DNA from: Sphingobium sp. CCH11-B1
Lineage (GTDB): Bacteria > Pseudomonadota > Alphaproteobacteria > Sphingomonadales > Sphingomonadaceae
Reading direction: 5' to 3'
NCBI RefSeq assembly: GCF_001556865.1
Contig: NZ_LSJY01000112.1
Location: 32,924-96,923 of the forward strand
DNA length: 64,000 nucleotides
In this document: piece by piece, positions 30,050 through 59,715 of the stretch
Layout of the letters: every line of letters begins with the position of its first letter
Numbering within the stretch: the first letter of the stretch is position 1
Made by a program: the position numbers and the translations under genes
Notes under the pieces: generated by a model
Databases searched by the model: none
What the model was told of the DNA's origin: nothing
Seen by the model: the letters and a program-made list of their open reading frames with translations, nothing else

Positions 30050-30472
30050 TTTCTACTCCGATTGTCGTCGACCCGCCCGCCAGACAGACCATATTCCGCG
30101 AAATCGCGGCTAGTGACTGTTAGAATGCCCGATTTGGTCCGCCCCGGATCGTCGACCCGGCCTGAAACGCCCCCAATCAAATCCTCGTCTCTCGCCTTGC
30201 CGTGGTCGAGGCGGCAGCGTGGGCCAAGACGAACAGGCTAGTCAACTCTCATCCTGTGGAAGTGCGTCTGCATCCCTTCTGATTGACCTGGCCGTCGACC
30301 GTACGGCGGTTGATCGCCCATACCAGCCGGAGCAATTCCGTTTCGAGGGGAAACAGACGATCTCGGCGACCCGAAGATTCGGCAGCGTGCATGGCGAGCG
30401 CTATTTTTTGCAACGATCCGTGCCGATCATTGCGTTGGATCGATAGGGGCGAAACAGGCATCAGGATCACGC
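30050..30472. promoter_or_regulatory. Divergent intergenic region before the purine operon
   Basis: This 423-nt stretch between aroQ (leftward) and the 19-gene purine operon (rightward) holds no credible gene; its short open frames look random. It must contain the promoter of the purine operon. At 30401-30442, 31-72 nt before the first start codon, lies a block that recurs upstream of the TonB receptor operon. Confidence 0.5.
30401..30442 (+). promoter_or_regulatory. Shared promoter block, copy 1 (candidate LysR operator)
   Basis: The first 15 bases (CTATTTTTTGCAACG) are identical to 52982-52996, and about 16 of the next 27 positions also match without gaps. An inverted CAACG...CGTTG pair (30411-30415 and 30433-30437) lies inside the block. 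The copy sits 31-72 nt upstream of the symporter start, a normal place for an activator site or promoter. The second copy has the same orientation relative to the rightward TonB receptor operon. Confidence 0.5.
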
Positions 30473-31453
30473 ATGCGCGCTATCCGCTTTATTCCTTCCG
30501 TTGACCCGTTCCTGCTGTTCCTGATCGCGACGGTTGCAGCGGCCTCGTTCCTGCCGGTTCGGGGCGCTGCGGCGGCATGGGTCGGGCTGATCGCCGATCT
30601 GGCGATCGCGCTCCTGTTCTTCCTGCACGGCGCAAAGCTGTCACGCGAGGCTATCGTGCAGGGTATCGGCAGCTGGCGGCTGCATCTGCTGGTATTCGGA
30701 TCGACCTATCTGCTGTTTCCAGCGATCGGCCTGGCCGTAGTCGACCTGTCGGGCGGGTGGGTCGATCCGCTGCTGCTGTCGGGCCTGCTCTATCTGACGC
30801 TGCTGCCTTCGACGGTACAGTCGTCGATCGCCTTTACGGCAATCGCCGGCGGCAATGTTGCAGCGGCGGTGTGCAGCGCTTCGCTTTCCAACCTGATCGG
30901 CATCGTGCTGACGCCGCTGCTGGTCAGCCTTGCGATGACGACCAGCGGCAGCGGCGTACAGATGAGCTGGCATTCGATCGAAGCCATCCTGTTGCAACTG
31001 CTGCTGCCCTTCGTCGCGGGTCATTTGCTGCGTCCGTTGATCGGCACTTTCGTGGCCCGCAACAAGGCTGTCCTGCAGATCGTGGATCGCGGATCGATCC
31101 TGCTGGTCGTCTATTCCGCCTTCAGCGCTGCGGTGGTGAACGGCATCTGGCTGATATTGGGATGGCGGGACATGGCGGCGCTGCTGGTGCTGAGTGCCCT
31201 CATCCTGGCGATCGTCATGGGGGCCAACCTGCTGGCCGCAAGGATGCTTAAACTGCCGCGCGAGGACGCAATCGTCCTGCTGTTCTGCGGCTCGAAGAAA
31301 AGCCTGGTATCGGGCGTACCAATGGCAGGTGCATTGTTCGCGCCGGCCAGCGTCGGCATGATCGTGCTGCCCCTGATGATCTTCCACCAGTTGCAACTGT
31401 TCGTCTGCGCCATGCTGGCCGCGCGCTATCGTCGCCAGATGGAGGCAGGCTGA
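30473..31453 (+). CDS. Bile acid:sodium symporter-like transporter (YfeH/SBF-like)
   Basis: A 326-residue polytopic inner-membrane protein of the SBF-like 7TM (BASS/YfeH) family with about nine to ten hydrophobic segments. Family-like motifs include LLYLTLLPSTVQSSIAFTAIAGGNVAAA and LLFCGSKKSLVSGVPMAG (kept here as two separate regions of the protein). It is the first gene of the purine operon, with AGGA 6 nt before the ATG. Its substrate is unknown; position suggests a purine-derived organic acid such as oxamate, oxalurate or allantoate, moved with sodium. That is inference from context only. Confidence 0.82.
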   Translation: MRAIRFIPSVDPFLLFLIATVAAASFLPVRGAAAAWVGLIADLAIALLFFLHGAKLSREAIVQGIGSWRLHLLVFGSTYLLFPAIGLAVVDLSGGWVDPLLLSGLLYLTLLPSTVQSSIAFTAIAGGNVAAAVCSASLSNLIGIVLTPLLVSLAMTTSGSGVQMSWHSIEAILLQLLLPFVAGHLLRPLIGTFVARNKAVLQIVDRGSILLVVYSAFSAAVVNGIWLILGWRDMAALLVLSALILAIVMGANLLAARMLKLPREDAIVLLFCGSKKSLVSGVPMAGALFAPASVGMIVLPLMIFHQLQLFVCAMLAARYRRQMEAG

Positions 31454-31454
31454 C

Positions 31455-31631
31455 ATGGCCGAAACGCCCCCGCCCGCCATTCCGCTGACCGACGAAGATG
31501 TCTTCGCGGCGGCGGCGACGCTCGATCTGCCGATCCTTGCAGCCTGCATGCCGGGCGTACTCGCCAATCTGGCGCTGCTTGACCGGCACGCCCGTACGCT
31601 GTTGACGGAAAGGGGCGCGGAATGCGAATGA
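31455..31631 (+). CDS. hpxX: AtzG/HpxX-like small subunit (DUF4089)
   Basis: A 58-residue protein (MAETPPPAIPLTDEDVFAAA ... LDLPILAACMPGVLANLALL) of the AtzG/DUF4089 type, a GatC-like stabilising subunit for AtzE-family amidases. It starts one base after the symporter stop and overlaps the amidase gene by 10 nt, the arrangement seen in atzG-atzE and in hpxX-hpxY of enterobacterial purine loci. Too short for many gene finders, but the family pattern and position are clear. Confidence 0.82.
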   Translation: MAETPPPAIPLTDEDVFAAAATLDLPILAACMPGVLANLALLDRHARTLLTERGAECE

Positions 31632-32968
31632 CCTCCGTCACCGCCATTGCCGATGCGGTCCGATCCGGCGCAGTAACGGCCGTCGCTGTGCTGGAACAGT
31701 GCCTGTCCGGGCTGGACCGGGAAGGGGGAAGGCTGGTCGCCGTCACCCGCCTCCTCGCCGAGCGGGCACGCAAGGAGGCGGAGGCAGTGGACGCGATCGT
31801 GGCCAGGGGCGGCGATCCGGGACCACTCGCCGGCGTGCCCTATGGTGTCAAGGATCTGTTCGATGTGGAGGGGCTGCCCACGACGGCAGGCTCCAGCCTC
31901 TACGCCGGCACGCCGCCCGCGACCGCCGATGCCGAAGCGATCACGATGCTGCGGGCGGCCGGGGCGGTGCTGGTCGCGACGCTCAACATGGACGAGTTCG
32001 CCTATGGTTTCGCGACGATCAACGCACACCATGGCACGACCCGCAATCCCCATGACCGGGAACGGCTGGCGGGCGGATCGTCCGGCGGATCGGCGGCCAT
32101 CGTTGCCGCCGGCTTGCTGCCCTTCTCGCTTGGTTCCGACACCAACGGATCGGTGCGGGTTCCCGCCAGCCTCACCGGCACCTACGGCCTGAAACCGACC
32201 CATGGCGGGCTGCCCATGGGCGGCGTCTTCCCCTTCGCCCGCAGTTTCGACGATGTCGGACCTTTCACTTTGTCAGTCCAGGACATGCAATGCGTGTGGC
32301 GCGCGCTGACGGGCAAGCAGCCCTCCTCCAATACCCAGGCGCTCCGCATCGCGCGGCTGGGTGGGCGGTTTCGCGAGAATGCCGATCCCGACCAGATCGA
32401 GGCGATCGACAAGATCGCGCCCGGCGCACCGCTGATCGAATTGCCCGATATCGGCGCGGCACGGTCTGCGGCGTTTCTGATCACCGCGGCGGAGGGCGGG
32501 GCGTTGCACCGCGCTGCGCTGGCCCGCGATCCGATGGCGTTCGATCCCGCGACCCGCGACCGCCTGATCGCCGGTGCCCTGCTGCCGCCTGAACTCTACG
32601 AGGCCGCACAGGACTTCAAGAAGCACTATCGCCAACGGATAAGTGCGCTGATCGCTGATCATGACGTCCTGCTGGCGCCGGCAACGCCCTGTGTCGCGCC
32701 GTTGATCGCCGATCCCCGCATCCTCATCGACGGAGCCTGGTCTCCGGCCCGCGCGGACCTGGGCATCCACAGTCAGCCGATCAGCTTCACCGGCCTCCCC
32801 TCCCTGTGCGTGCCGCTCAACCGGCCCGGCCAGTTGCCGATCGGCATCCAGTTAATCGGCAAGGCGGGCGAGGAAGCCACTTTATTCCGCCTCGCCGCAA
32901 TGCTGGAAGAAGAGGGGCAGATCGGCGTAACATTGCCGACGGGCTTGTTTCAGGGGGATCCAATATGA
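31622..32968 (+). CDS. hpxY: AtzE/HpxY-like amidase (amidase signature family)
   Basis: A 448-residue amidase-signature enzyme. The catalytic Lys is in GVPYGVKDLFDVEG, and the glycine-serine segment with cis-Ser and nucleophile Ser is LAGGSSGGSAAIVAAGL followed by LGSDTNGSVRVPASLTG. It belongs with the preceding AtzG-like subunit. In Klebsiella the hpxWXYZ genes act after oxalurate, and HpxY is thought to hydrolyse the ureido group of oxalurate towards oxamate; the same step is inferred here. The ATG at 31622 or the ATG at 31628 (overlapping the previous stop) may be used. Confidence 0.87.
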   Translation: MRMTSVTAIADAVRSGAVTAVAVLEQCLSGLDREGGRLVAVTRLLAERARKEAEAVDAIVARGGDPGPLAGVPYGVKDLFDVEGLPTTAGSSLYAGTPPATADAEAITMLRAAGAVLVATLNMDEFAYGFATINAHHGTTRNPHDRERLAGGSSGGSAAIVAAGLLPFSLGSDTNGSVRVPASLTGTYGLKPTHGGLPMGGVFPFARSFDDVGPFTLSVQDMQCVWRALTGKQPSSNTQALRIARLGGRFRENADPDQIEAIDKIAPGAPLIELPDIGAARSAAFLITAAEGGALHRAALARDPMAFDPATRDRLIAGALLPPELYEAAQDFKKHYRQRISALIADHDVLLAPATPCVAPLIADPRILIDGAWSPARADLGIHSQPISFTGLPSLCVPLNRPGQLPIGIQLIGKAGEEATLFRLAAMLEEEGQIGVTLPTGLFQGDPI

Positions 32969-34335
32969 CCGATGCCGTTTCGTTGGACGCGGCGGCGACA
33001 TCGCCGCCGGCGGCCAGCCGTCTGGACCGCTATTTCGCCCTGACGGAGCGCGGCACGACCGCCCGTACCGAGATATTGGCAGGCATCACCACCTTCCTCA
33101 CCATGGCCTATATCGTTCTGGTCAACCCATCGATCCTGAGCGCGGCGGGGATGCCGGTCGCCTCGGTCGCGGCGGCGACCTGCTTTGCAGCCGCCTTCGC
33201 TTCCATTTTGATGGGCATGGTCGCAAACACGCCGCTGGCGCTGGCGCCGGGGATGGGGCTCAACGCCTATTTCGCCTTCACTGTCGTTGGTCAGATGGGG
33301 GTGCCCTGGCCCGTGGCGCTGGGCTGCGTGTTCATTTCGGGCGTGGCCTTCCTCATCCTGACGCTGACCGGGGTGCGGCAGATGATCGTGGCGGTGATCC
33401 CGCCCTATCTGTTCGCGGCGGTAGCGGGGGGTATTGGCCTGTTCATCGGTTTCATCGGCCTCAAAAATGCCGGCATCATCGCCGCCAATCCCGCGACCTT
33501 CGTGGCGCTGGGCAACCTCAAGGCGCCGGGCGCCGCTCTGGCCTTGCTTGGCTTGGCGGTAATCGGCGCGCTCAGCGTCTGGAATGTGCGCGGCGCAATG
33601 CTATTCGGGATCGTCGGCACGACCATTATCGGCTGGCTGACGGGGCAGGTGACGGTCAACCCCGAACCCTATGACCTATCCGCGCTGACCGGCACGGCGT
33701 TCAAGCTCGACCTGCCCGGCGTGTTCGGCCTGACCGGGTCGCACGGCATCGGCCTCATCGAAATCCTGTTCGTCTTCCTGTTCGTCGACCTGTTCGACAA
33801 TATCGGCACGCTGGTCGCCGTCACCAAACGCGCGGGGCTGATCGACGCGGCGGGCCGCATCCCCGGCCTCAACCGCATCCTGATGACCGATGCGGTCGCG
33901 ACCATGGTGGGGTCGATTGCGGGCACCAGCACGGTCACCTCCTATGTCGAGAGCGCAGCGGGCGTGCAGGCCGGCGGACGCACGGGCCTCACCGCCGTGG
34001 TAACCGGCATCTTGTTTCTGGCGACGATGTTCGTCGCCCCTTACGCGCAGATCGTTCCGCTGGCGGCGACCGCGCCGGCCCTGATCATCGTCGGCGGGCT
34101 GATGCTGCTGCCGCTGACGGAGATCGAATGGGAAGACCCGATGGCGGCGATCCCCGCCTTCCTCACCGTGGCGATGATCCCGCTCACCTTCTCCATCGCG
34201 AACGGCTTGGCCTTCGGCATCACCGCCCATGCGGCGCTGAAGCTGATCCGCGGCCGCGCGACGCGGACCGACTGGTTCCTGTTCCTCCTCGCCGGGCTGT
34301 TCGTCGTCCGCTTCGTCTGGATGTCCGCCGCATGA
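32965..34335 (+). CDS. NCS2 purine permease, AzgA/GhxP-like
   Basis: A 456-residue inner-membrane transporter of the AzgA-like branch of NCS2, which imports adenine, guanine or hypoxanthine with protons. Hallmarks are the N-terminal block RGTTARTEILAGITTFLTMA and YIVLVNPSIL, NTPLALAPGMGLNAYFAFTV, FLFVDLFDNIGTLVAV and GTSTVTSYVESAAGVQAGGR. About 12-14 hydrophobic segments. The ATG overlaps the amidase stop (ATGA) and has AGGGGG upstream. It would import bases freed in the periplasm by the exported nucleosidases of this locus. Confidence 0.92.
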   Translation: MTDAVSLDAAATSPPAASRLDRYFALTERGTTARTEILAGITTFLTMAYIVLVNPSILSAAGMPVASVAAATCFAAAFASILMGMVANTPLALAPGMGLNAYFAFTVVGQMGVPWPVALGCVFISGVAFLILTLTGVRQMIVAVIPPYLFAAVAGGIGLFIGFIGLKNAGIIAANPATFVALGNLKAPGAALALLGLAVIGALSVWNVRGAMLFGIVGTTIIGWLTGQVTVNPEPYDLSALTGTAFKLDLPGVFGLTGSHGIGLIEILFVFLFVDLFDNIGTLVAVTKRAGLIDAAGRIPGLNRILMTDAVATMVGSIAGTSTVTSYVESAAGVQAGGRTGLTAVVTGILFLATMFVAPYAQIVPLAATAPALIIVGGLMLLPLTEIEWEDPMAAIPAFLTVAMIPLTFSIANGLAFGITAHAALKLIRGRATRTDWFLFLLAGLFVVRFVWMSAA

Positions 34336-35258
34336 TCCGCTTTCTGGCTCTTGCCTTTCTGTCCTTCTTCGCCGCACCCGCTTTCGCGCAGAAGCTGGAC
34401 GAGACGCCCCGCACGGTGGTGATGACCGCCTACCGGCCGGAATGGAATGCGCTGGTCGCCCATGTAGAGCAGCCGCAAGAGCACAGGATCAACGGCATGA
34501 CGCTGCTGACCGGCACGATGTCGGGCAAGCCCGTCATCCTGATGATGAGCGGCGTGTCGATGGTGAACGCGGCGATGAACAGCCAGATCGTCATCGACCG
34601 TTTCGCCGTGAAGCGCATCGTCTTTTCGGGCATCGCCGGCGGTGTCGATCCGGCGCTGTCGATCGGTGACGTGATCGTGGCGGACAACTGGGGGCAATAT
34701 CTGGAGGCGAGCTTCGCCCGGCGCACCAGAACCGGCTATGTCCCGCCCGAAAATGCCGGGCCGGACGCGCCCGCCAACTGGAACTTCATCTTTCCGCGCG
34801 GCACCAGCGTCGGCAACGAGGCAACGCCGGCAAAGCGCGTCTTCCGCTTGCCCGTCGATCCATCGTTGCTGGATCTGGCCCGGAAAATCGCGCCGCAGGT
34901 CCAGTTGGAGCGCTGCGTTCCGCCTCATCCCGAAGCATTGCCCGGTTCCGCGCTCTGCCTGCCGAAATCGCCGAAGATCGTCGTCGGCGGCACCGGCGTA
35001 TCGGCCGGCATCTTCGCCGACAACGCGGCCTTTCGCCAATATCTGCACCGGGCTTGGGGCGCGCGCCTACTGGACATGGAAAGCGCGGCGGTTGCCCAGG
35101 TCGCCTATGCCAATCGCGTGCCGGCCATCTTCTTCCGCAGCCTCTCCGACCTAGCCGGCGGCGATGCCACCAAGAATATGGAGGATACATTCGAGCATCT
35201 GGCGTCGGTGAACAGCGCGCATGTCGTGCGCGCCTATATCGCGGCCTTGCCGGACTGA
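34332..35258 (+). CDS. Exported phosphorylase-superfamily nucleosidase (MTA/SAH nucleosidase-like)
   Basis: A 308-residue protein of the PNP/UDP phosphorylase superfamily with a signal peptide (MIRFLALAFLSFFAAPAFAQ). Core motifs: RIVFSGIAGGVDPALSIGDV (glycine-rich phosphate/ribose site), RLLDMESAAVAQVAYANRVP (ribose-binding Met-Glu) and FRSLSDLAGG (catalytic Asp loop). It probably splits purine nucleosides or methylthioadenosine in the periplasm. It overlaps the permease gene by 4 nt, which fits cleavage outside followed by base import. Confidence 0.85.
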   Translation: MIRFLALAFLSFFAAPAFAQKLDETPRTVVMTAYRPEWNALVAHVEQPQEHRINGMTLLTGTMSGKPVILMMSGVSMVNAAMNSQIVIDRFAVKRIVFSGIAGGVDPALSIGDVIVADNWGQYLEASFARRTRTGYVPPENAGPDAPANWNFIFPRGTSVGNEATPAKRVFRLPVDPSLLDLARKIAPQVQLERCVPPHPEALPGSALCLPKSPKIVVGGTGVSAGIFADNAAFRQYLHRAWGARLLDMESAAVAQVAYANRVPAIFFRSLSDLAGGDATKNMEDTFEHLASVNSAHVVRAYIAALPD

Positions 35259-36841
35259 TGGCGATGCAAACCGTTTCCGGCCGGCACGGCATGACGACCG
35301 CGCCTCATTATCTTGCCGCAGAGGCCGGGCGCGAGGTGCTGCGCGACGGCGGTAACGCGGTGGAAGCCTGTGTCGCGATCGCGGCGACGCTGGCTGTCGT
35401 CTACCCGCATATGACCGGGATAGGCGGCGACGGCTTCTGGCTCATCGCCGAGCCGGACGGCCGCGTGCGCGGCATCCATGGCTGCGGCGGCGCAGCGATG
35501 AAGGCCGATCTGTCGCTCTACGCGGGGATGAACGCTGTGCCGACGCGCGGCCCGCTGGCGGCCAATACGGTTGCAGGAACCATATCCGGCTGGGAGGCGG
35601 CACTGGTGGGCAGCGGCGGGACGATGCCGCTCGACCGCCTGCTACGCGACGCCATCGCCCATGCCAGGGCGGGCATAGCTGTGACGAAGGGCGGCGCCGG
35701 CATCGCAGCAGCCAAGGGCGGGGAACTGCGCGCGCAGCCGGGGGCGTATCGCGCGATCTTTGAGCCGGGAGGCCGGCCTTTGATTGAAGGCGACATACTG
35801 AAACAGCCTGCCCTAGCTGACACCCTGGAACGGCTGGCGGCCGATGGCCTGGCGGGTTTCTACACCGGCGCTCTGGCCGCCGACATTGTCGCCGATCTGG
35901 AAGCGCTGGGCAGCCCGGTCTCCGCTGCCGATCTTGCTGCACATGACGCCTTCCTCGCGACGCCGCTTAAAACCCGGATCAGCGGCGCGACCCTTTATAA
36001 CAGCGCGCCGCCGACGCAGGGCTTCGCCTCGCTCCTGATCCTCGCCCTGTTCGATCGGCTGAAGGCCGGGAGCGCCGACGGCTTCGATCATGTGCATGGC
36101 CTGATCGAGGCGACCAAGCAGGCTTTCCTGCTGCGCGACGCCCATGTCGGTGACCCCGCCTTCCACGATTATGACTATCAGGGGCTGCTGGACGATCCGG
36201 GCGCGCTCGACAGTCTGGCCGCGAAGATCGATCCGGCCCACGCCTTGTCATGGCCGCCGCCGCCGCAATGGGGCGACACCTGCTGGTTCGCGGCGGCGGA
36301 CGGCGAGGGGCGCGTCGTCAGCTGCATCCAGTCGACCTATTTCGAGTTCGGCTCGGGCGTCGTGCTGCCGCGGACCGGCATCACCTGGCAGAACAGAGGC
36401 TCCAGCTTTCGCCTCGCGCCGGGCGGCTGGAACGCGCTCAAGCCCGGTCGCAAGCCCTTCCACACCCTCAACCCCGCGCTTGCCAGGTTCGACGACGGCC
36501 GCGTCATGGCCTATGGCACTATGGGTGGCGAAGGGCAGCCGCAGACGCAGGCGGCGCTCTTCACTCGCTACGCCCGCTTCGCGGTCGACCTGCAACAGGC
36601 GATCAGCGCGCCCCGCTGGCTGCTTGGCCGTACCTGGGGCGAGGAGAGCACCACGCTGAAACTGGAAGATGGTTTCGATGAGCGGCTCTATTCTGATCTC
36701 GCCATCGCGGGTCATGATGTCGAGCGCGTCGGGCCGCTGACCGCGACCATGGGTCATGCCGGCGCGATCGTGCGGCATTCCGATGGAAGGCTGGACGGTG
36801 CAACGGATCCGCGCAGCGACGGCGCGGTGGCGGCATGGTGA
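35258..36841 (+). CDS. hpxW: Oxamate amidohydrolase-like protein (HpxW, gamma-glutamyltransferase fold)
   Basis: A 527-residue Ntn-hydrolase of the gamma-glutamyltransferase superfamily. N-terminal GMTTAPHYLAAEAGREVLRD and YPHMTGIGGDGFWLI are family features. The predicted autoprocessing/nucleophile Thr is in WGDTCWFAAADGEGR (Thr about 341), giving large and small chains. HpxW of Klebsiella hydrolyses oxamate to oxalate plus ammonia, and gene context (hpxX, hpxY, hpxZ, aminotransferase) points to the same role. The ATG at 35258 overlaps the preceding stop by one base (TGATG); the frame open back to 35054 lies inside the previous gene. Confidence 0.87.
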   Translation: MAMQTVSGRHGMTTAPHYLAAEAGREVLRDGGNAVEACVAIAATLAVVYPHMTGIGGDGFWLIAEPDGRVRGIHGCGGAAMKADLSLYAGMNAVPTRGPLAANTVAGTISGWEAALVGSGGTMPLDRLLRDAIAHARAGIAVTKGGAGIAAAKGGELRAQPGAYRAIFEPGGRPLIEGDILKQPALADTLERLAADGLAGFYTGALAADIVADLEALGSPVSAADLAAHDAFLATPLKTRISGATLYNSAPPTQGFASLLILALFDRLKAGSADGFDHVHGLIEATKQAFLLRDAHVGDPAFHDYDYQGLLDDPGALDSLAAKIDPAHALSWPPPPQWGDTCWFAAADGEGRVVSCIQSTYFEFGSGVVLPRTGITWQNRGSSFRLAPGGWNALKPGRKPFHTLNPALARFDDGRVMAYGTMGGEGQPQTQAALFTRYARFAVDLQQAISAPRWLLGRTWGEESTTLKLEDGFDERLYSDLAIAGHDVERVGPLTATMGHAGAIVRHSDGRLDGATDPRSDGAVAAW

Positions 36842-51420: not shown

Positions 51421-51431
51421 TGGTTTCTCCC

Positions 51432-51962
51432 TCAGGCGAGACGCTCGGGGACGGACAGCGCTTCCTCGATGATCGTGGTGCGCATCCCGACCGCTTCCCA
51501 AGGGAAGACGAACCAGCGTTTGTCTTCCTCCCGGTCGATCATTTGCGCCCAGTAATCGACACTCGCGCGGGACCGGCTGTTGTTGATAAGGACGGCGAAC
51601 CGCAGGTTCGCGCCCTCGCAATCATTGTCCGCCAGCAGCCGGCGGACATAGGCGATGGTGCCGCCGCTGTCGTTGATATCGTCGATGAAGAGCAGCTTCA
51701 CGCCCGCCGCGCTCTTGGCGGCGACTTTCGCCAGCAGTTCGTCGGCAAAGCCCGGCACCTTGGAACTATGGTCGATAGACAGCATCGGCAGGTCGGCGTG
51801 GTGGGAGATATAGACCGCCGGGACGAGGCCGCCGCGACCGATGCCGATCACGAAGTCCGGCTTCCAGTCGCTCTCGCCTATCTGTCTCGCGACGCTTCTG
51901 ACATCGGCCAGAAATGCTTCGTCGGTGATGTAGTGAAGTTCAGGGGCGGCCTCTATGCTCAT
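51432..51962 (-). CDS. Purine-type phosphoribosyltransferase
   Basis: A 176-residue type I phosphoribosyltransferase. The PRPP-binding motif is LLFIDDINDSGGTIAYV, preceded by the flexible-loop region and the PPi loop FVIGIGRGGLVPAVYIS. It resembles xanthine/guanine/hypoxanthine salvage enzymes, and its place in the purine locus supports a base-salvage role. It is followed after 11 nt by the LOG gene and preceded by the LysR gene (76 nt), so the three may be co-transcribed leftwards. Confidence 0.85.
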   Translation of the reverse strand: MSIEAAPELHYITDEAFLADVRSVARQIGESDWKPDFVIGIGRGGLVPAVYISHHADLPMLSIDHSSKVPGFADELLAKVAAKSAAGVKLLFIDDINDSGGTIAYVRRLLADNDCEGANLRFAVLINNSRSRASVDYWAQMIDREEDKRWFVFPWEAVGMRTTIIEEALSVPERLA

Positions 51963-52038: not shown

Positions 52039-52974
52039 TTACAGATCGCCTGGCCCTTCGATCGACAAGGGATAGCTGAGCTGGCCAAAGCCGTTCTCGA
52101 TTTCCTGCAGCATCATCGTGGCGGCGTAGGACGGCGTGCGGGCCGAAGCCGTGCACAGGCCAAGGGTCATCGGCCGCAATATCGGGTCGGAGATTCGCGT
52201 GAAGGTCAACAGACCCCTGCGGACTTCGGTAATGACGTCCAGCGACGTCAGAATGCCGATGCCGACGCCTTGCGACACGAGCGAGGTGATCATCTGGATA
52301 TTGTCGGAGGACACGGCTTTATCCATGATCACGCCGGTCGTGCCTTCCAGCACCGAAACCTGCTCATATACGGCGAGTGGCCGTGCCGGCACGATCAGTT
52401 TTGACCCGCTGCAGGCGGAAAAGCGCGCTTCCCGCTTGGCGCCGAAGGGATGGCCGCAGGGCGTCACAAAACCCAGCACGACGTCAACGAAGGCGCGCAC
52501 CGCCAGGTCGCGAAAACTTTGCGGATCGAAGAAAATGCCGAAATCCACCTCACCCCGAGCCGTTGCCTGCCGGGCCAGATCATTTTCCATCACTCTGACG
52601 CCAACGCTGATGCCGGGATATTTGCCCTGAACCGACCGGATAACCGAGGGGATATAGCCCTTTGCCAAAGCGTCGATGACTGCGATCTCGACATGACCGC
52701 GCTTCAAGCCGCGTAGATCCTCTATCTGCGCGCGGACGTCGGCCATATTCTTCTGCCACTTGCTGCCCGCGGCCATCATGATCTCGCCCGCTGCGGTCAG
52801 GCGAAGGCCGGTCGGCAGGCGCTCGAAAAGCGGCATTCCAAGATTGGCTTCGACGTTCAATATCTGCCGGTCGATCGCCGAGGCAGAGACATTTAACTCG
52901 TCCGCCGCACGCCGGATCGAGCCCAGCCGCCCGACCGCGAGAAAATAGCGAAGGAAGCGGGAAAGAGCGGGCAC
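52039..52974 (-). CDS. LysR-family transcriptional regulator
   Basis: A 311-residue LysR-type regulator. The winged helix-turn-helix is in residues about 1-65 (LSRFLRYFLAVGRLGSIRRA, ADELNVSASAIDRQI, and LFERLPTGLRLTAAGE), followed by a periplasmic-binding-like effector domain. It is divergent from the TonB receptor operon and is the only regulator in the window, so it is the natural candidate to control the purine locus, with a purine intermediate as effector. A GTG at 52974 with AGG 6 nt upstream is preferred; a TTG at 52980 also fits the frame. Confidence 0.9.
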   Translation of the reverse strand: MPALSRFLRYFLAVGRLGSIRRAADELNVSASAIDRQILNVEANLGMPLFERLPTGLRLTAAGEIMMAAGSKWQKNMADVRAQIEDLRGLKRGHVEIAVIDALAKGYIPSVIRSVQGKYPGISVGVRVMENDLARQATARGEVDFGIFFDPQSFRDLAVRAFVDVVLGFVTPCGHPFGAKREARFSACSGSKLIVPARPLAVYEQVSVLEGTTGVIMDKAVSSDNIQMITSLVSQGVGIGILTSLDVITEVRRGLLTFTRISDPILRPMTLGLCTASARTPSYAATMMLQEIENGFGQLSYPLSIEGPGDL

Positions 52975-52981
52975 ACCCAAC

Positions 52982-53023
52982 CTATTTTTTGCAACGCAGC
53001 GTCGAGTTCATGGCATTTGCTCG
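52982..53023 (+). promoter_or_regulatory. Shared promoter block, copy 2 (candidate LysR operator)
   Basis: The block starts with the same 15 bases (CTATTTTTTGCAACG) as 30401-30415 and keeps about 31 of 42 matches overall. It lies immediately upstream of the LysR start codon and about 210-250 nt upstream of the TonB receptor gene, in the usual divergent LysR arrangement where one site serves autoregulation and activation. The rest of the divergent gap (53024-53232) shows no other clear element apart from the AAGGGGGG ribosome-binding site of the receptor gene. Confidence 0.5.
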
Positions 53024-53232
53024 CATCCCGTCAAGCCCCTAATTCGTCTCGTGGCATCTTCTGCATCATGCGAAACGGCATCGGGGTCGTCGCTGGCGCA
53101 GAGCAGTCACCACAACAGTCCGCAGCATCCAACCATGCGCGGCATTTTGAAAAGAGGAGAGGAGATCAGGGACAAGGGCCGGAGCGCATCGCCACGAGGC
53201 AGCGCTCGCCGGCTAAAGGGGGGTATATAATA

Positions 53233-55722
53233 ATGATCAACACGCATTCGCCGGCCGTCAAACTCAATGTCGCGTCGCAAAAATCCCTACGGAGGGCGCC
53301 CTTCTGCTTCGCAGCAGCCGGCCTTCTCGCCTGCACGGCGCTAACGGCGCCGGCCTTCGCGCAGAGCCCTGCAGCCGAAGACGAGCCAACAGACGAGATC
53401 GTCGTCACCGGCGCGCTTGACGCCTTGCCGATCAAGAATGTCGGCTCCATCTTCGGCTTCGACAAGACGATCGTGGAAACGCCACGATCCGCCTCTACCA
53501 TTTCGAAGGAACAGATCGAGCGTTTCGGCATCACCGACATCTATGATCTGGTCGCGCAGGCGCCCGGCACCTTCACCAACAGCTTCTTCGGCGTCGGCGG
53601 CGCGCTCGACATTCGCGGAACGCCCGGCGAAGTCTATTTCCGGGGCATGCGCCGGCTCGACAATCCGGGCAACTATCCCACCCCGATCGCGGCGTCCGAC
53701 CGCATCGACATCGTGCGCGGCCCCGCCTCGCCCATCTATGGTCCATCCAAGACCGGCGGCTATATGAACTTCGTCCCCAAGTCCGCGCGCGTCGCCGACG
53801 GCAAGCTGCGCGACAAGGCTTCGGGCGAACTCAGCTACACCCGCGGCAGCTGGGACATGAATATCGCTAAGGGCGAGATTTCCGGTCCGCTCAAGATCGG
53901 CGAGCAGGAATTCGGCTACAGCCTGTTCGGCCAATATGAGGACGACGGCAGCTATTATCGCAACATGAGCACCAAGCAATATATATTGCAGGCCTCGTTC
54001 GATACCGATCTGTCCGACCATGTCCGGATTGAATGGGGCGGCCAGTATCAGAATTACAAGGGCCAGCAGAATGGCGGCTGGAACCGCCTGACCCAGGATC
54101 TGGTCGACAATGGCACCTATCTGACCGGTCAGGCAAAGCCGGTGGACACCAATGGCGATGGCCAGATGTCGCAGGGCGAGATCAACGCGGTCGTACCCGG
54201 CGGCTTCTCGATCTTCGGCAATTTCGCCTGCCCGAACAGCACATTCAGTCCGTTCGCGACCGGGTTTACCGACGCGTGCTTCGGGCCCGGCGCCTTCGAT
54301 GCGCTCAACCTCGTCAACACCGGCACGGCCAAGCTCAGCCGCCGCGACACGCTGACGGGCAAGGACGACAAGCTCAACAACCGGGGCACCGCGCTCTATT
54401 TCGACGCGATCTACACGTCAGACAGCGGTTTCGAACTCAAGAACCAGTGGTTCTACGACAGCTACGAGAACCTAAACGAAAACGCCTATGGCTTCTCGCA
54501 ATTCCATGACAGCTGGGTGATCGAGGACAAGATCGTCGCGTCCAAGACATTCGAGAACAAGGCGGGCAAATTCGCGTTTCAGCTCTCGCCTTCGGTGCGC
54601 TACACCAAATTCGCCCATGGCGACGACTTCAACTATGAATATTTCCACCGCGTCGATCTGACCGTCGGCTACAACGCGCTATCGGATCGACTGCTATCGA
54701 CCGAATGCGATTGCAATTACACCAGCAACGTCGTTGGCCATTATTCGGACCTCGCCTTTGCGGGTCTGGCCGATCTCGATTTCGCCTTCGGCCTCGATTT
54801 GACACTCGGCGCTCGCTACGATCATTTCGACGTCAAGGCCACCAACCTGACGTCGAAGATGGAAGCCGCCGCCATCCCCGCGATCAACAATGGCAGCGGC
54901 AGCAAGGGCGCGTGGTCCTATTCGGGCAGCGCCTCCTACAAGATGCCATTCGGCCTCATCCCCTATGCGACGATCGCCAAACAGTCGGTCGTGATCGCCG
55001 GCCAGGGCGCGGAAATCTATCCCGACCTCGCTGCTACCAACACGTTCATTTCAGCATCGAAGCTGTACGAGGCGGGCGTCAAGGGCAGCTGGCTGGACAA
55101 CAAGCTCTATGCCGCAGTCTCGGTCTACAAGCAGAAGCGCAACGATTTCAACGTCCAGTCCATCACAGTAAACCAGGCGGTCGAAACCAAAGGACTGGAA
55201 GCGGAATTCCGCTGGTCGGTGGACCGGCACCTGCTTATCACCGGTGCCTACACCCACACCAACGTCTATAACCTGACCGCGCTCGAGAGCGGCACGCTGT
55301 TCAGCTTCTTCGGCATCGAGGATCTGGTGAACGTCACCAATCCCTATCTGTACCTGGGCGGTCAGCCGATCGGCCTGGTGCCCATCAACAGCAAGAGCGA
55401 TTCCAAGCGCGCGGGCATCCCCGAAAATATGTTCTCCGCGACCGCGACCTACGCGTTCGATTTCGGCCTTGCCCTGTCCGCCAGCGCGGTCCATGTCGAC
55501 TCGGTCTATTCGGGCCAGAGCCAGGCGGTGAAGCTCCCGGCCTATACGACCGTCGATCTCGGCGCGTCGTTCGAGACCGGACCGTTTCTCTTCCGCCTGG
55601 TCGTCAAGAATGCGACCAACGAGAAATATTTCCGCGCCAACTTCACCGAATTGTTCGGCAGCACGATCGTACTTCCGGAACGTCCGCGGAGCTTCCAGGC
55701 GTCGGCGGTCTATAAATTCTGA
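53233..55722 (+). CDS. TonB-dependent outer-membrane receptor of the purine locus
   Basis: An 829-residue TonB-dependent transporter. It has a signal peptide (about 1-44, ending PAFAQ), a TonB-box-like DEIVVTG (about 54-60) and a plug domain at about 65-190 (TPRSASTISKEQIERFGITD, DIRGTPGEVYFRGMRRLDNP, RIDIVRGPASPIYGPSKTGG). A 22-strand barrel follows, ending in SFQASAVYKF. The substrate is not readable, but its operon partners are purine enzymes, so a purine base, nucleoside or related compound is likely. AAGGGGGG 9 nt before the ATG decides the start over the longer frame from 53017. Confidence 0.92.
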   Translation: MINTHSPAVKLNVASQKSLRRAPFCFAAAGLLACTALTAPAFAQSPAAEDEPTDEIVVTGALDALPIKNVGSIFGFDKTIVETPRSASTISKEQIERFGITDIYDLVAQAPGTFTNSFFGVGGALDIRGTPGEVYFRGMRRLDNPGNYPTPIAASDRIDIVRGPASPIYGPSKTGGYMNFVPKSARVADGKLRDKASGELSYTRGSWDMNIAKGEISGPLKIGEQEFGYSLFGQYEDDGSYYRNMSTKQYILQASFDTDLSDHVRIEWGGQYQNYKGQQNGGWNRLTQDLVDNGTYLTGQAKPVDTNGDGQMSQGEINAVVPGGFSIFGNFACPNSTFSPFATGFTDACFGPGAFDALNLVNTGTAKLSRRDTLTGKDDKLNNRGTALYFDAIYTSDSGFELKNQWFYDSYENLNENAYGFSQFHDSWVIEDKIVASKTFENKAGKFAFQLSPSVRYTKFAHGDDFNYEYFHRVDLTVGYNALSDRLLSTECDCNYTSNVVGHYSDLAFAGLADLDFAFGLDLTLGARYDHFDVKATNLTSKMEAAAIPAINNGSGSKGAWSYSGSASYKMPFGLIPYATIAKQSVVIAGQGAEIYPDLAATNTFISASKLYEAGVKGSWLDNKLYAAVSVYKQKRNDFNVQSITVNQAVETKGLEAEFRWSVDRHLLITGAYTHTNVYNLTALESGTLFSFFGIEDLVNVTNPYLYLGGQPIGLVPINSKSDSKRAGIPENMFSATATYAFDFGLALSASAVHVDSVYSGQSQAVKLPAYTTVDLGASFETGPFLFRLVVKNATNEKYFRANFTELFGSTIVLPERPRSFQASAVYKF

Positions 55723-55728
55723 TGAACA

Positions 55729-55868: not shown

Positions 55869-56957
55869 ATGCCCCTGATCCCGCGCCTTTTCCTGCTCGC
55901 CGCGGCAGCCTTGCTGCCCGCAATGGCGGCTTATGCGCAGCCCCGGCCATCGGATTGCGCGCCCGGCGCGCCCTGCTCCAAGCCGCTTTCAGTCCGCGTC
56001 GTCATCGTCACCATGTTCGAGATCGGGGCGGACACGGGCGACGCACCCGGCGAATTTCAATTGTGGAAGGAACGGCGCAAGCTCGATACCCGCATTCCCT
56101 TCCCGCAGGGCTATCACGACCTCTACTATAATCCGGACAGCCGCATCCTGGCGATGGTGACGGGCGTGGGCACGGCGCGCTCGGGCACCGGCGTCATGGC
56201 GCTGGGCCTCGACCCGCGGTTTGACCTGTCCAAAGCCTATTGGCTGGTGGCGGGTATCGCCGGCATCGACCCACAGGACGCCTCGATCGGATCGGCCGCT
56301 TGGGCGCGCTACAGCGTCGATGGCGATCTGGCGCATGAGATCGACGCGCGCGAAATTCCCACCGGCTGGAAATCGGGCTTCTTCCCACTCGACAAGCAGG
56401 GACCCGATGACAAAAGTCCCCCCATCACCGAAGGCCGGGTCTTTGCGCTCAGCCCCAGGCTAACCGATTGGGCCTATGCGCTCACCAGGGACATAAAGCT
56501 GCCCGACGATCCGGGCATCGCCAAGGAACGCGCCCGCTACACCGGCTATCCCAATGCGCAAAAGCCGCCCTTCGTGCTCATGGGCGATCAACTGTCCGCC
56601 ATGACCTTCTGGCATGGCAAGCTGCTCACCGACTGGGCGAATGATTGGGTGCGCTATTCGACGAGCGGCAAAGGCGAATTCGTGACCTCCGCCATGGAAG
56701 AGACGGGCACGCTGCAGGCGATCACCTATCTCGACAGGATCGACAAGGTGGACAAGGGCCGCGTCATGGTGCTGCGATCGGGCAGCAATTTCTCCATGCC
56801 TCCGCCCGACGTGTCCGCCGCCGACTATCTGCTGCGCGAGAATGAAGGCTATGCGGGCATGAAAGCCTCTCTGGAGAGCCTTTATATCGTGGGCTCCAAG
56901 GTGGTCGACGAGCTGATCGGCCATTGGGACCGCTATGAAAAGGCGCCGCCCGAGTGA
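55869..56957 (+). CDS. Purine nucleoside permease (NUP) family protein, probably a periplasmic nucleosidase
   Basis: A 362-residue protein of the NUP family (named after a yeast purine nucleoside permease) but with a bacterial signal peptide (MPLIPRLFLLAAAALLPAMA, cleaved near AYAQ) and no membrane segments. The fold resembles nucleoside phosphorylases: VRVVIVTMFEIGADTGDAPG, ILAMVTGVGTARSGTGVMAL, WLVAGIAGIDPQDASIGSAA and VTSAMEETGTLQAI (Met-Glu ribose site). A periplasmic purine nucleoside-cleaving or -binding role is inferred. The ATG at 55869 is about 146 nt after the receptor stop; earlier in-frame sequence is low-complexity and unlikely coding. Confidence 0.85.
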   Translation: MPLIPRLFLLAAAALLPAMAAYAQPRPSDCAPGAPCSKPLSVRVVIVTMFEIGADTGDAPGEFQLWKERRKLDTRIPFPQGYHDLYYNPDSRILAMVTGVGTARSGTGVMALGLDPRFDLSKAYWLVAGIAGIDPQDASIGSAAWARYSVDGDLAHEIDAREIPTGWKSGFFPLDKQGPDDKSPPITEGRVFALSPRLTDWAYALTRDIKLPDDPGIAKERARYTGYPNAQKPPFVLMGDQLSAMTFWHGKLLTDWANDWVRYSTSGKGEFVTSAMEETGTLQAITYLDRIDKVDKGRVMVLRSGSNFSMPPPDVSAADYLLRENEGYAGMKASLESLYIVGSKVVDELIGHWDRYEKAPPE

Positions 56958-58315
56958 CCCTGACGGTCATCCGCAACGCCGACATCCTCGTCACCATGGA
57001 TGATCGGCGGCGCGAGATTGCAAGCGGGGCGCTGGCCTTCCGAGACGGGGTCATCGAAATGGTCGGGGCGACGGCAGAGCTGGCCGCGCTGGAGCGGGAC
57101 GCCGATGCGGTGATCGACGCCACCGGCTGCGTCCTGACCCCCGGTCTCGTCAACACGCATCACCATCTCTACCAGTCGCTGACGCGCGCTCTGCCTGGGG
57201 CAATCAACGCATCGCTGTTCGACTGGCTAAAGCACCTCTATCCCATCTGGGCGCGCTACACGCCCGAGGATGTGTTCGCGGCCACCCAGCTTGGCCTCGC
57301 GGAACTGGCGCTGTCGGGCTGCACGCTCAGCAGCGACCATCTTTATCTGTTCCCCAACGGCGTGACACTGGACGATACAATCGCCGCCGCGCAAGGCATC
57401 GGCATCCGCTTCCACCCGACGCGCGGCGCGATGAGCGTGGGCGAAAGTGCCGGCGGCCTGCCACCCGACAGCCTGGTCGAGCGGGAGGACGCGATCCTCA
57501 ACGACTGCATCCGGGTGATCGACCGCTTCCATGATGCCAAGGACGGCGCGATGGTCCGGGTCGGCGTTGCCCCCTGCTCGCCTTTCTCCGTCAGCCGCGA
57601 GCTGATGCGCGACGCGGCGGTGCTGGCGCGCGACAAGGGCGTGATGCTGCACACCCATCTGGCCGAAGATGTCGACGACGTCGCCTTCAGCCTGGAGCGT
57701 TTCGGATGCCGGCCGGGCCAATATGCGGAGGAGCTGGGCTGGACCGGCTCCGATGTCTGGCACGCTCACTGCGTGCAGCTCGACGCGCAGGAGATAGAGC
57801 TGTTCGCCCGCAGCCGGACCGGCGTCGCTCATTGCCCCTGCTCCAACTGCCGGCTCGGATCGGGCATCGCGCCGCTGCGCGCAATGGTCGCACTAGGGGT
57901 GCCGGTCGGTATCGGCGTCGACGGCTCCGCGTCGAGCGACAGCGGACACCTGCTGCTGGAAGCGCGGCAGGCGATGCTGCTCCAGCGCGCGGTTGGGGGA
58001 CCGTCCGTCTTCGATCCGCGCGACGCGCTGTTCCTGGCGACGCGCGGGGGCGCGCAGATATTGGGCCGGCCCGATTGCGGATCGCTCGAGCCGGGCAAGC
58101 GCGCCGACATTGTGCTTTGGGACATGGCGAACATCCCGTCCGCGGGGGCATGGGACAAGGTCGCGGCGCTGCTGCTTGCGCCGCCATCGGGTGCACGCGA
58201 CGTCTTTGTCGAAGGGCGGGCGGTGGTGCGCGACGGCGATCTGGTGCAGGCCAGCCGCAGCGACATAATGCGCGCCGCCGACCGTTCGCTCGCCCGCCTG
58301 ATGGAAGCCGCCTGA
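56954..58315 (+). CDS. 8-Oxoguanine deaminase-like amidohydrolase
   Basis: A 453-residue metal-dependent amidohydrolase close to the 8-oxoguanine deaminase/chlorohydrolase branch. Motifs: LTPGLVNTHHHLYQSLTRAL, MLHTHLAEDVDD, WHAHCVQLDAQE and GIGVDGSASSDSGHLL; CPCSNCRLGSGIAPL is typical of 8-oxoguanine deaminases. It would convert 8-oxoguanine to urate, feeding the same pathway below XdhAB. The start is a GTG at 56954 overlapping the NUP stop (GTGA). Confidence 0.87.
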   Translation: MTLTVIRNADILVTMDDRRREIASGALAFRDGVIEMVGATAELAALERDADAVIDATGCVLTPGLVNTHHHLYQSLTRALPGAINASLFDWLKHLYPIWARYTPEDVFAATQLGLAELALSGCTLSSDHLYLFPNGVTLDDTIAAAQGIGIRFHPTRGAMSVGESAGGLPPDSLVEREDAILNDCIRVIDRFHDAKDGAMVRVGVAPCSPFSVSRELMRDAAVLARDKGVMLHTHLAEDVDDVAFSLERFGCRPGQYAEELGWTGSDVWHAHCVQLDAQEIELFARSRTGVAHCPCSNCRLGSGIAPLRAMVALGVPVGIGVDGSASSDSGHLLLEARQAMLLQRAVGGPSVFDPRDALFLATRGGAQILGRPDCGSLEPGKRADIVLWDMANIPSAGAWDKVAALLLAPPSGARDVFVEGRAVVRDGDLVQASRSDIMRAADRSLARLMEAA

Positions 58316-59715
58316 TGCACGCCCTGCCGCCTTCCGAGCTGAACACATCGCTCCGCGCCGGGGTGATGACGGCCGACCAGGCGCGCGATCCCGATCATTT
58401 CCCCGCCCTTGCCGTCGCTCTGCCATTGGGCATCCAGCATGTGCTGGCGATGTTCGTCAGCAACCTGACGCCGGCCATCATCGTCGCCGGCGCGGCGGGC
58501 TTCGGCTTCGGATCGCCCGATTCCAGCGCGCTCATCTACATGATCCAGATGGCAATGCTGTTCGCCGGGGTCGCCACGCTGATCCAGACGATCGGCTTCG
58601 GACCGGCGGGTGCTCGGCTGCCGCTAGTGCAAGGGACCAGCTTCGCCTTCCTGCCGGTGATGATCCCGATCGTCGCTGGTCAGGGCGTCGCCGCCATGGC
58701 GCAGCTGACGACGGCGGCGATCTGCGGCGGGTTGTTCCATATGGGGGTGAGCGTCTTCATCGGGCGCATCCGCTTCGCCCTGCCGCCGATGGTCACGGGC
58801 CTCGTCGTGCTGATGATCGGCTTGTCCCTGATGCGCGTGGGGGTGCAATATGCTGCGGGCGGGGTGCCTGCTCAGGGGACGCCTGCTTACGGGGCCGGCA
58901 TCAGCTGGATGCTGGCGGGGATCGTGGTGTTCACGACGCTGGGCCTGAGCTTCTTCGGTAGGGGCATCTGGTCGACCGCATCGGTGCTGCTCGGGTTGGC
59001 AGCCGGCTATGCGGTGGCGGCGTTGCTGGGGCGGGTGTCGCTCACGCCGGTTGCTTCTGCACCTTGGTTCATGCTGCCCTCGCCCTTCCATTTCGGCTTC
59101 GCCTTGTCCACGTCGGCGATATTGGGCTTCGTGCTGATGGGCTTCATCTCCGCCATTGAGTCCATCGGCGCGGTGTCGGCGATCTGCGAAAATGGCGCGG
59201 GGCGGCCGGCGACAGATAGGGAACTGATCGGTGCGACCTGTGCCGACGGCATGGGTACCGCGATCGCCGGCATGTTCGGCGCCATGCCCAATACCAGCTT
59301 CAGCCAGAATGTCGGCCTGATCGCCATTACCGGCATCATGAGCCGCCATGTCGTGACGATCGGCGCGCTGTTCCTGATCGCCTGCGGCCTCGCGCCCAAG
59401 GTCGGCGCACTGGTCACCACCATCCCGATCGAGGTGCTGGGCGGCGGGGTGATCGTGATGTTCGGCATGGTCGCATCTGCTGCCCTGTCGATCCTGTCGG
59501 GCGTTGCCTGGACCCAGCGCAACATGCTGATCTTCGGCGTGGCGCTGTCGGTCGGCATCGGGCTTGAACTGGAGCCGGACGCGGTATCGCACTTGCCCGA
59601 TACGTTGCGGATCGTGCTGACCTCAGGGGTGCTGCCGGCAGCGCTGATCGCCGTCATCCTCAACCTGCTGGTGCCGGATCGTGCGGCGCAGCCTCTGGCA
59701 GTGCCCGCAGAATAG
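58315..59715 (+). CDS. NCS2 xanthine/uric acid permease
   Basis: A 466-residue nucleobase:cation symporter-2 protein with about 14 hydrophobic segments. Family features: LALGIQHVLAM-like N-terminal segment (ALPLGIQHVLAMFVSN), LPLVQGTSFAFLPVMI, and the signature around FISAIESIGAVSAICE with NTSFSQNVGLIAITG. Xanthine or urate is the likely substrate, complementing the AzgA-like permease at 32965. The ATG overlaps the deaminase stop by one base. Confidence 0.9.
   Translation: MHALPPSELNTSLRAGVMTADQARDPDHFPALAVALPLGIQHVLAMFVSNLTPAIIVAGAAGFGFGSPDSSALIYMIQMAMLFAGVATLIQTIGFGPAGARLPLVQGTSFAFLPVMIPIVAGQGVAAMAQLTTAAICGGLFHMGVSVFIGRIRFALPPMVTGLVVLMIGLSLMRVGVQYAAGGVPAQGTPAYGAGISWMLAGIVVFTTLGLSFFGRGIWSTASVLLGLAAGYAVAALLGRVSLTPVASAPWFMLPSPFHFGFALSTSAILGFVLMGFISAIESIGAVSAICENGAGRPATDRELIGATCADGMGTAIAGMFGAMPNTSFSQNVGLIAITGIMSRHVVTIGALFLIACGLAPKVGALVTTIPIEVLGGGVIVMFGMVASAALSILSGVAWTQRNMLIFGVALSVGIGLELEPDAVSHLPDTLRIVLTSGVLPAALIAVILNLLVPDRAAQPLAVPAE

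What the first reader, a model, noticed from the sequence alone, without database searches (positions are those of the whole stretch)
30401..59715. PUL-like purine utilisation locus with its own TonB-dependent receptor and periplasmic nucleosidases
The locus combines an outer-membrane TonB receptor, three signal-peptide-bearing nucleosidase-fold proteins, two different NCS2 permeases and a full cytosolic route from adenine, guanine and 8-oxoguanine to oxamate/oxalate-level products. This mirrors polysaccharide utilisation loci but for purines. TonB-dependent uptake of purines or nucleosides is little described, so the receptor substrate is the key unknown.
Basis: partly seen in the sequence, partly recalled or inferred. 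Interest (0 to 1): 0.7.

Follow-up and report, generated by a model that had tools for sequence, protein, structure and literature searches.

The report
Purine-nucleoside scavenging locus with TonB receptor
A Sphingobium-like bacterium carries a 29-kb gene cluster that probably captures purine nucleosides (DNA/RNA building blocks) with a dedicated active outer-membrane receptor, trims them in the periplasm and breaks them down for nitrogen, a nutrient not usually linked to this kind of receptor.

Summary
It also has two NCS2 permeases, three signal-peptide nucleoside-cleaving enzymes, a LysR regulator and a TonB receptor.

The receptor belongs to a monophyletic clade; 56 of 59 members have relatives of the locus's purine genes within 8 kb, 53 of 59 a NUP gene. 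Of 20 other TonB receptors from the same genomes 1 had a weak hit; of 7 distant relatives none.

New here: a ~40-bp element precedes both the catabolic operon (30405) and LysR/receptor (52986), and is found exactly twice in each of 8 related genomes. NUP, named 'permease', is predicted to have the MTA-nucleosidase fold. One gammaproteobacterial version carries its own TonB-ExbB-ExbD.

Best reading: a LysR-controlled purine-nucleoside uptake and catabolic locus. It works like a polysaccharide utilisation locus but is not one (no SusC/SusD). The receptor substrate is inferred, not shown.

The parts
30399..30444 (+). Operator-like element, copy A, before the catabolic operon (core 30405-30433)
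   Evidence: 31 of 46 positions identical to copy B; 2 hits in the window, none in 100 shuffles; present in 14 of 14 loci where this promoter is held, the window included (in L026 the gene behind it runs off the contig)
30473..31453 (+). SBF-like transporter (PF13593), substrate unknown; first gene of the operon
   Evidence: same place in several relatives
31622..32968 (+). AtzE-family amidase (HpxX-like, oxalurate/oxamate branch)
   Evidence: NF006631 542 bits against 461
32965..34335 (+). NCS2 permease a (PF00860)
34332..35258 (+). PNP_UDP_1 nucleosidase with signal peptide
   Evidence: start chosen by signal peptide
35258..36841 (+). Gamma-glutamyltransferase-family protein, HpxW-like (oxamate amidohydrolase by context); start uncertain
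36835..38124 (+). Allantoate amidohydrolase
   Evidence: NF006775 554 bits against 479
38111..39349 (+). Class V aminotransferase, HpxJ-like by context
   Evidence: no equivalog cut-off reached
39346..40215 (+). Allantoinase PuuE
   Evidence: TIGR03212 492 bits against 424.6
40212..40592 (+). HpxZ
   Evidence: NF033625 148 bits against 135
40589..41038 (+). OHCU decarboxylase UraD
   Evidence: TIGR03164 177 bits against 96
41035..42450 (+). FAD-dependent urate hydroxylase, HpyO type
   Evidence: 82%-identical protein P0036 named HpyO by its source; Pfam
42447..42779 (+). Hydroxyisourate hydrolase UraH, ends in YRGS
   Evidence: TIGR02962 108 bits against 87
42781..44211 (+). XdhA
44204..46513 (+). 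XdhB (start by eye)
46510..47430 (+). XdhC
47427..48725 (+). Guanine deaminase
48722..49738 (+). Adenosine/adenine deaminase (PRK09358.1-6)
   Evidence: the name does not settle base or nucleoside
49735..50835 (+). IU_nuc_hydro nucleoside hydrolase with signal peptide
50842..51426 (-). LOG-family (TIGR00730) protein
   Evidence: found in many sphingomonad relatives
51432..51962 (-). Purine phosphoribosyltransferase-like (PF00156)
52039..52980 (-). LysR-type regulator, divergent from the receptor
52980..53025 (+). Operator-like element, copy B, LysR/receptor intergenic (core 52986-53014)
53233..55722 (+). TonB-dependent receptor, signal peptide, plug and barrel
55869..56957 (+). NUP (PF06516), signal peptide, MTA-nucleosidase-like fold
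56954..58315 (+). 8-oxoguanine deaminase
58315..59715 (+). NCS2 permease b (PbuX-like)
   Evidence: TIGR03173 399.9 bits, under its cut-off of 414; TIGR00801 300 bits against 292

Best explanation
This is a purine-nucleoside utilisation locus. (1) Inferred: the TonB receptor at 53233-55722 pumps purine nucleosides, or small compounds that contain them, across the outer membrane. (2) Inferred from families, signal peptides and predicted fold: periplasmic NUP, with the IU_nuc_hydro and PNP-type enzymes, splits them into base and sugar; in many relatives a secreted adenosine deaminase could act first, giving inosine. (3) By family: the two NCS2 permeases bring the bases inside. (4) By family: guanine, 8-oxoguanine and adenine/adenosine deaminases, xanthine dehydrogenase, HpyO, UraH, UraD, PuuE, AllC, an HpxJ-like aminotransferase and the HpxX/Z/W-like proteins release nitrogen down to oxamate/oxalate. 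(5) Shown as sequence, inferred as function: one promoter element ties receptor/LysR and catabolic operons into one regulon, most simply under the adjacent LysR protein.
For: Receptor-NUP linkage: NUP lies downstream on the same strand in 38 of 38 fetched relatives with a receptor ORF, within about 0.4 kb in 37. Samples chosen without regard to context (but centred on genomes with the locus): 22 of 25 clade receptors have at least one purine-gene relative within 8 kb. Co-occurrence: 5 of 6 receptor genomes have NUP, which 14 of 296 genomes have (P 6e-7); 10 of 11, with NUP in 11 of 247 (P 6e-16; kinship ignored). Clade monophyletic, support 1.0, 58 sequences, 20 control receptors outside. Element: exactly 2 sites in each of 8 genomes, reversed control 0; absent from 38 control, distant or NUP-NCS2 loci; a looser third copy before a secreted ADGF deaminase gene in 5 Sphingobium loci. 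NUP genes outside the clade loci sit beside an NCS2 permease in 9 of 11 in the 296-genome sample, and in G306 beside a Ureide_permease-family transporter and a PfkB kinase. TonB, ExbD and ExbB genes lie between receptor and NUP in L084.
Against: No binding, uptake or expression data exist here. The receptor's best named relatives are siderophore receptors (TIGR01783, 134 bits, below its 223.5 cut-off), and its model resembles FhuA/Fiu/PiuA with low confidence. Three clade genes (L088, L095, L096) have no purine gene within 8 kb; L096 is cut by a contig end only on its upstream side. G334 has the receptor in a purine locus but no NUP in the genome, G306 NUP without the receptor. A 31%-identical paralogue outside the clade also sits in one purine locus (L091), and another receptor-like gene outside the clade stands beside a second NUP in G006 (L071), so purine context is not exclusive to the clade. 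Nucleosides are small enough to pass porins. No own genome is held for the window.
Confidence: 0.7

Rival explanations
1. The receptor imports a free purine base or catabolite (xanthine, urate, allantoin) rather than nucleosides; the nucleosidases serve nucleosides that enter by other channels.
For: The locus covers xanthine, urate and allantoin steps. G221 has the receptor next to 8-oxoguanine deaminase with no NUP in the genome. L097 has only an NCS2 permease nearby, and G334 lacks NUP.
Against: The most constant partners are nucleoside enzymes: NUP 53 of 59 and ADGF 41 of 59, against at most 14 of 59 for any Xdh subunit. This comparison is weakened by the 8-kb limit, which leaves xdh outside in many sphingomonad loci that do have it further off.
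Confidence: 0.15
2. The receptor takes up larger purine-containing molecules (nucleotides, NAD, oligonucleotides, cytokinin ribosides) too big for porins, which periplasmic enzymes trim to nucleosides.
For: TonB receptors usually handle large or scarce substrates (abstract start of PMC11658791). A 5'-nucleotidase-family gene sits in one gammaproteobacterial locus (L089). A LOG-family gene, a family known for cytokinin-ribotide and purine-monophosphate hydrolysis (recalled; the NCBIfam cytokinin model scores under its cut-off), lies beside LysR in sphingomonads.
Against: No nuclease or nucleotidase family was hit among the ORFs of the locus scanned. The other gammaproteobacterial loci were not scanned for nucleotidases. 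LOG was not detected in the gammaproteobacterial versions.
Confidence: 0.1
3. An iron-siderophore, molybdenum or other cofactor receptor that merely lies beside the purine genes.
For: Nearest named models and solved structures are mostly siderophore receptors; XdhAB needs molybdenum and iron-sulphur clusters (established knowledge).
Against: Clade-wide purine context in two classes, including loci without xdh within 8 kb; score below the siderophore-family cut-off; no siderophore-synthesis family hit among the window ORFs scanned; element shared with the catabolic promoter.
Confidence: 0.05

Closest known systems
Polysaccharide utilisation loci (SusC/SusD type, Bacteroidota; recalled)
   Same: Outer-membrane TonB receptor, periplasmic cleaving enzymes, inner-membrane importers, cytosolic catabolism and a regulator in one locus
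   Different: No SusC-family receptor and no SusD among the ORFs scanned; substrate class is purines
CUT loci (recalled) and Caulobacter MalA/NagA systems (passage in PMC11658791)
   Same: Proteobacterial TonB receptor dedicated to a small organic nutrient
   Different: Those described take up sugars; here the partners are purine genes
Ribose/nucleoside locus rus of Bacteroides thetaiotaomicron (recalled; the paper is not held)
   Same: TonB-type receptor with nucleoside hydrolases
   Different: SusCD-type, Bacteroidota, built for ribose, without a purine-ring catabolic route (recalled)
Klebsiella hpx and Xanthomonas hpyO purine catabolic genes
   Same: Same cytosolic steps; HpyO-type urate hydroxylase described for Xanthomonas (passages in PMC4562309)
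   Different: No TonB receptor mentioned in PMC4562309 (term search); otherwise recalled
Periplasmic MTA/SAH nucleosidase of Aeromonas hydrophila (5b7q)
   Different: 15% identity; NUP has an invariant Asn where a weak profile alignment to the window's PNP-type protein puts an Asp (that this is the catalytic acid of MTAN is recalled)
Tsx of E. coli
   Same: Outer-membrane route for nucleosides (passage in PMC11658791)
   Different: A porin, not a TonB-dependent receptor

Membership tests
Polysaccharide utilisation locus | SusC-family receptor | tested here: not met
   NCBIfam scan lists 17 families for the receptor at E<=0.001, none SusC-type
Polysaccharide utilisation locus | SusD-like surface lipoprotein | tested here: not met
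   no SusD family in Pfam scans of the ORFs examined between 30.4 and 60.5 kb; ORFs under 120 aa were mostly not scanned
Polysaccharide utilisation locus | glycan-degrading enzymes | tested here: not met
   within the locus the only 'Polysacc_deac' hit is the allantoinase PuuE
TonB-dependent nutrient receptor | plug domain, barrel, signal peptide, TonB-box-like segment | tested here: met
   PF07715; barrel strands in a low-confidence model; signal peptide and EIVVTGA by eye
TonB-dependent nutrient receptor | TonB-powered uptake of the substrate | not testable with these tools
   indirect only: TonB/ExbB/ExbD beside it in L084
TonB-siderophore receptor TIGR01783 | score over curated cut-off | tested here: not met
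   134.4 bits against 223.5
NUP PF06516 | score over gathering cut-off | tested here: met
   380 bits against 27
NUP PF06516 | permease activity implied by the name | tested here: inconclusive
   predicted alpha/beta nucleosidase fold with signal peptide argues against a membrane permease; activity untested
hpx/hpy purine catabolic pathway | urate hydroxylase, HIU hydrolase, OHCU decarboxylase, allantoinase, allantoate amidohydrolase | tested here: met
   HpyO by the source name of an 82% relative, the other four over curated cut-offs
LysR regulon | LysR binds the shared element | not testable with these tools
   position only: element at the LysR promoter in 35 of 35 sphingomonad records of L001-L040 that hold it

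The most novel reading that the evidence does not exclude
A previously unrecognised clade of TonB-dependent receptors in Alpha- and Gammaproteobacteria is dedicated to active uptake of purine nucleosides. Its usual partner is a mis-named 'permease' that is really a periplasmic purine nucleosidase (predicted hydrolase, perhaps favouring inosine/guanosine), and in some gammaproteobacteria it has a private TonB-ExbB-ExbD motor. In sphingomonads a LysR regulon with only two or three sites per genome runs it.
Probability: 0.55. Interest if true: 0.72.

Novelty: new variant of a known kind. Interest (0 to 1): 0.62.

Why it matters
TonB receptors are abundant (41 to 99 plug-domain matches per genome in 8 relatives) and mostly without a known substrate (general knowledge). 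A clade tied to purine nucleosides by gene context, phylogeny and promoter element gives a testable substrate for a non-iron, non-sugar class. It would help explain how oligotrophs without general porins (described for Caulobacter, abstract of PMC4659666) compete for dissolved nucleosides, which several bacteria draw from one diatom (PMC8027193, passages). It would also correct the 'purine nucleoside permease' label of PF06516 and offer a small LysR regulon with a well-defined element.

Tried and rejected
Siderophore receptor: rejected as the main reading because the model score is under the cut-off and clade-wide context is purine. Member of the PUL family: rejected, no SusC/SusD (and Pfam calls). 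HpxO-type urate oxidase: the flavoprotein is instead HpyO-like. Missing HIU hydrolase: my first ORF list (minimum 120 aa) hid it; found. RNA element: Rfam at gathering thresholds found nothing in the window. The promoter/terminator scan of 42.3-59.9 kb gave counts near the shuffles and was not used. A looser 25-base version of the element with 3 mismatches gave 12 hits against 6.4 expected and was dropped as too weak; TTTTTGCAAC alone with one mismatch gave 4 against 1.6. A 6-base inverted repeat was found in copy A and none in copy B, so I do not claim a palindromic LysR site. The receptor model is too uncertain (mean pLDDT 65.8, plug mostly under 50) to read a binding pocket. hhalign of NUP with the window's PNP-type protein is weak (probability 17.8, E 0.0014), so the Asp-to-Asn idea is only a lead. 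A profile built from the clade recognised few of the other TonB receptors and was not used further. Own-genome search: none held.

Literature: 10 searches, seen as listings. No paper was found with both 'purine nucleoside permease' and 'TonB'. Of the two papers with TonB-dependent receptor, purine, nucleoside and xanthine I read passages of one (PMC9870897), which in those passages names no nucleoside TonB receptor; the other was seen in the listing only. In the TonB review PMC11658791 'purine' and 'nucleobase' do not occur, and 'nucleoside' occurs 4 times, for Tsx or in reference titles. PMC4052901 has no 'TonB'. Subscription papers are largely not held, so absence from print is not proven.
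Full report
WHAT IS THERE. The window is 63.4% G+C and its closest matches for the receptor are Sphingobium: a MAG (L018/L039, 91-97%) and S. ummariense RL-3 (L001, 85%). Most genes from 31.6 to 50.8 kb overlap or abut on the plus strand. A hydroxyisourate hydrolase sits between the flavoprotein and xdhA. The flavoprotein is of the HpyO type: an 82%-identical protein carries that name from its source (P0036), and HpyO is described as a Xanthomonas urate oxidase using NAD(P)H and FAD (PMC4562309, passages). So the urate-to-allantoin steps are all present by family. On the minus strand between 50.8 and 53.0 kb lie a LOG-family gene, a phosphoribosyltransferase-like gene and the LysR gene.

IS THE RECEPTOR REALLY A PURINE RECEPTOR? 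I first fetched relatives by peptide patterns (40 loci, one genome per species). NUP lies downstream on the same strand in 38 of 38 records that hold a receptor ORF, within about 0.4 kb in 37; in L012 a deaminase-like gene lies between. That set was selected for similarity, so I added samples chosen without regard to context, though centred on genomes that have the locus. In 296 genomes of the order of S. ummariense the clade occurs in 6 and NUP in 14, together in 5, adjacent in all 5; the sixth, G221, has the receptor followed by 8-oxoguanine deaminase. In 247 genomes of the order of Paraglaciecola the clade is in 11, NUP in 11, both in 10. In 194 genomes of the order of the gammaproteobacterial MAG G007 the clade is in 6; in 289 Alphaproteobacteria only in G001, with NUP over the cut-off in 3. 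Counting genes, 25 clade receptors come from the three order samples, and 22 of them have a purine-gene relative within 8 kb. Hypergeometric P values for co-occurrence in the first two samples are 6e-7 and 6e-16; they ignore kinship between genomes.

CONTROLS. I searched 8 kb on each side of the receptor with 21 proteins of the locus, E 1e-10, 40% coverage; the set includes some broad families such as AtzE and GGT. Of 60 clade records 57 had at least one hit and 56 at least two. After merging the split gene L018/L039 the numbers are 56 and 55 of 59, 39 from sphingomonads and 20 from gammaproteobacteria. Exceptions are L088, L095 and L096 (the last is cut by a contig end upstream only); L097 has only an NCS2 permease. 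Seven relatives at about 30-38% identity had none, some of them on contigs of 5 to 13 kb. Twenty other TonB receptors from the same genomes gave one weak hit (23% to the PNP-type protein). A tree of 84 sequences puts all 58 clade members together, support 1.0, with five distant relatives as sisters and the 20 controls outside, whichever of three controls roots it (which replaces, where 2 of 20 control ORFs were in a wrong frame). Against this: a 31% paralogue sits inside one purine locus (L091); G347 and G367 have 33% paralogues about 20 kb away on the same contig; and in G006 another plug-domain gene outside the clade stands beside a second NUP (L071).

ONE REGULON. Aligning LysR upstream regions showed a strongly conserved block. 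Its core, TTTTTGCAAC-N4-CGT-N5-TCATNGC, occurs twice in the window, at 30405 and 52986, and never in 100 shuffles. Both copies have the same orientation relative to the operon they precede. The catabolic-promoter copy is present in 14 of 14 loci where that promoter is held, counting the window; L125 does not reach it, and in L026 the gene behind it runs off the contig. The LysR-promoter copy is in all 35 sphingomonad records of L001-L040 that hold that promoter and in L069 and L070, but not in G221's locus (L074), where no LysR relative was detected; it is in 0 of 22 gammaproteobacterial loci and 0 of 38 control, distant or NUP-NCS2 loci. Across eight whole genomes, with one mismatch allowed, there are exactly two sites each and the reversed pattern gives none. 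Fifteen of the 16 sites map to these two promoters in loci I hold; the sixteenth (G003:C33:172608) lies about 3 kb beyond the NCS2a gene of L125, where the operon start is expected, but that stretch was not read. In five Sphingobium loci a looser third copy, not matched by the pattern, precedes a secreted ADGF deaminase gene. That LysR is the binder is inference from position.

ENERGY SUPPLY. In L084 the stretch between receptor and NUP encodes DUF3450, two MotA/ExbB-family proteins, ExbD, TonB and a TPR protein; L083, L085 and L089 show proteins with similar starts but were not scanned. A purine locus with its own TonB motor supports TonB-dependence of the receptor there. No such genes were found among the ORFs scanned in the window's locus.

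COMPARISON. It works like a polysaccharide utilisation locus, but the defining SusC and SusD were tested and not met. It is closer in spirit to proteobacterial TonB systems for small sugars (passage of PMC11658791). The Bacteroides rus locus (recalled, paper not held) is the nearest precedent for a TonB-type receptor linked to nucleosides. In the searches listed I found no described proteobacterial TonB receptor for nucleosides, but that library lacks most subscription journals.

VERDICT. Observation confirmed; interpretation supported and sharpened to nucleosides; mechanism inferred in its first step. New variant of a known kind.

Noticed in passing
30405-30433 and 52986-53014: Same ~40-bp promoter element before two parts of the locus, found only twice per genome in 8 related genomes; a compact LysR regulon candidate.
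   Followed up: yes
50842-51962: LOG-family (TIGR00730) and phosphoribosyltransferase-like genes on the minus strand, frequent beside LysR in sphingomonads; perhaps a salvage or overflow valve for purine monophosphates.
   Followed up: partly
30473-31453: SBF-like (PF13593) transporter opens the catabolic operon in several relatives; substrate unknown, perhaps a catabolic intermediate.
   Followed up: partly
L084:7488-16349: TonB/ExbB/ExbD/DUF3450/TPR set between receptor and NUP in a gammaproteobacterial purine locus.
   Followed up: partly
L123:6180-7680 and L127:13650-15170: No HpyO-like gene was detected between UraD and XdhA in these two relatives; another urate oxidase may fill the gap.
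   Followed up: no
L035:12526-14238 and L036:2372-4045: In Paraglaciecola NUP carries an extra C-terminal part of roughly 150-200 residues, not identified by scan.
   Followed up: no
L071:7119-10767: A plug-domain receptor gene outside the clade lies divergently beside a second NUP gene in the Paraglaciecola genome G006.
   Followed up: partly
L099:2723-3817 and L100:9029-10123: NUP with a Ureide_permease-family transporter and a PfkB-family kinase, without the receptor; the same neighbourhood appears on two contigs of G306.
   Followed up: partly
440-20565: Exopolysaccharide cluster: chain-length protein, beta-barrel porin 2, O-antigen ligase, glycosyltransferases, acyltransferases, GH10.
   Followed up: no
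22154-26716 (-): 1520-aa protein with polysaccharide lyase, Big_6 and RTX repeats.
   Followed up: no
60882-63546 (-): Ankyrin-repeat and DUF1552 (HXXSHH) genes beside the locus; a similar pair, by eye, lies beside the receptor in L074.
   Followed up: no
59739-60488 (-): Cytochrome b561-family gene often found at the edge of the locus in relatives.
   Followed up: no
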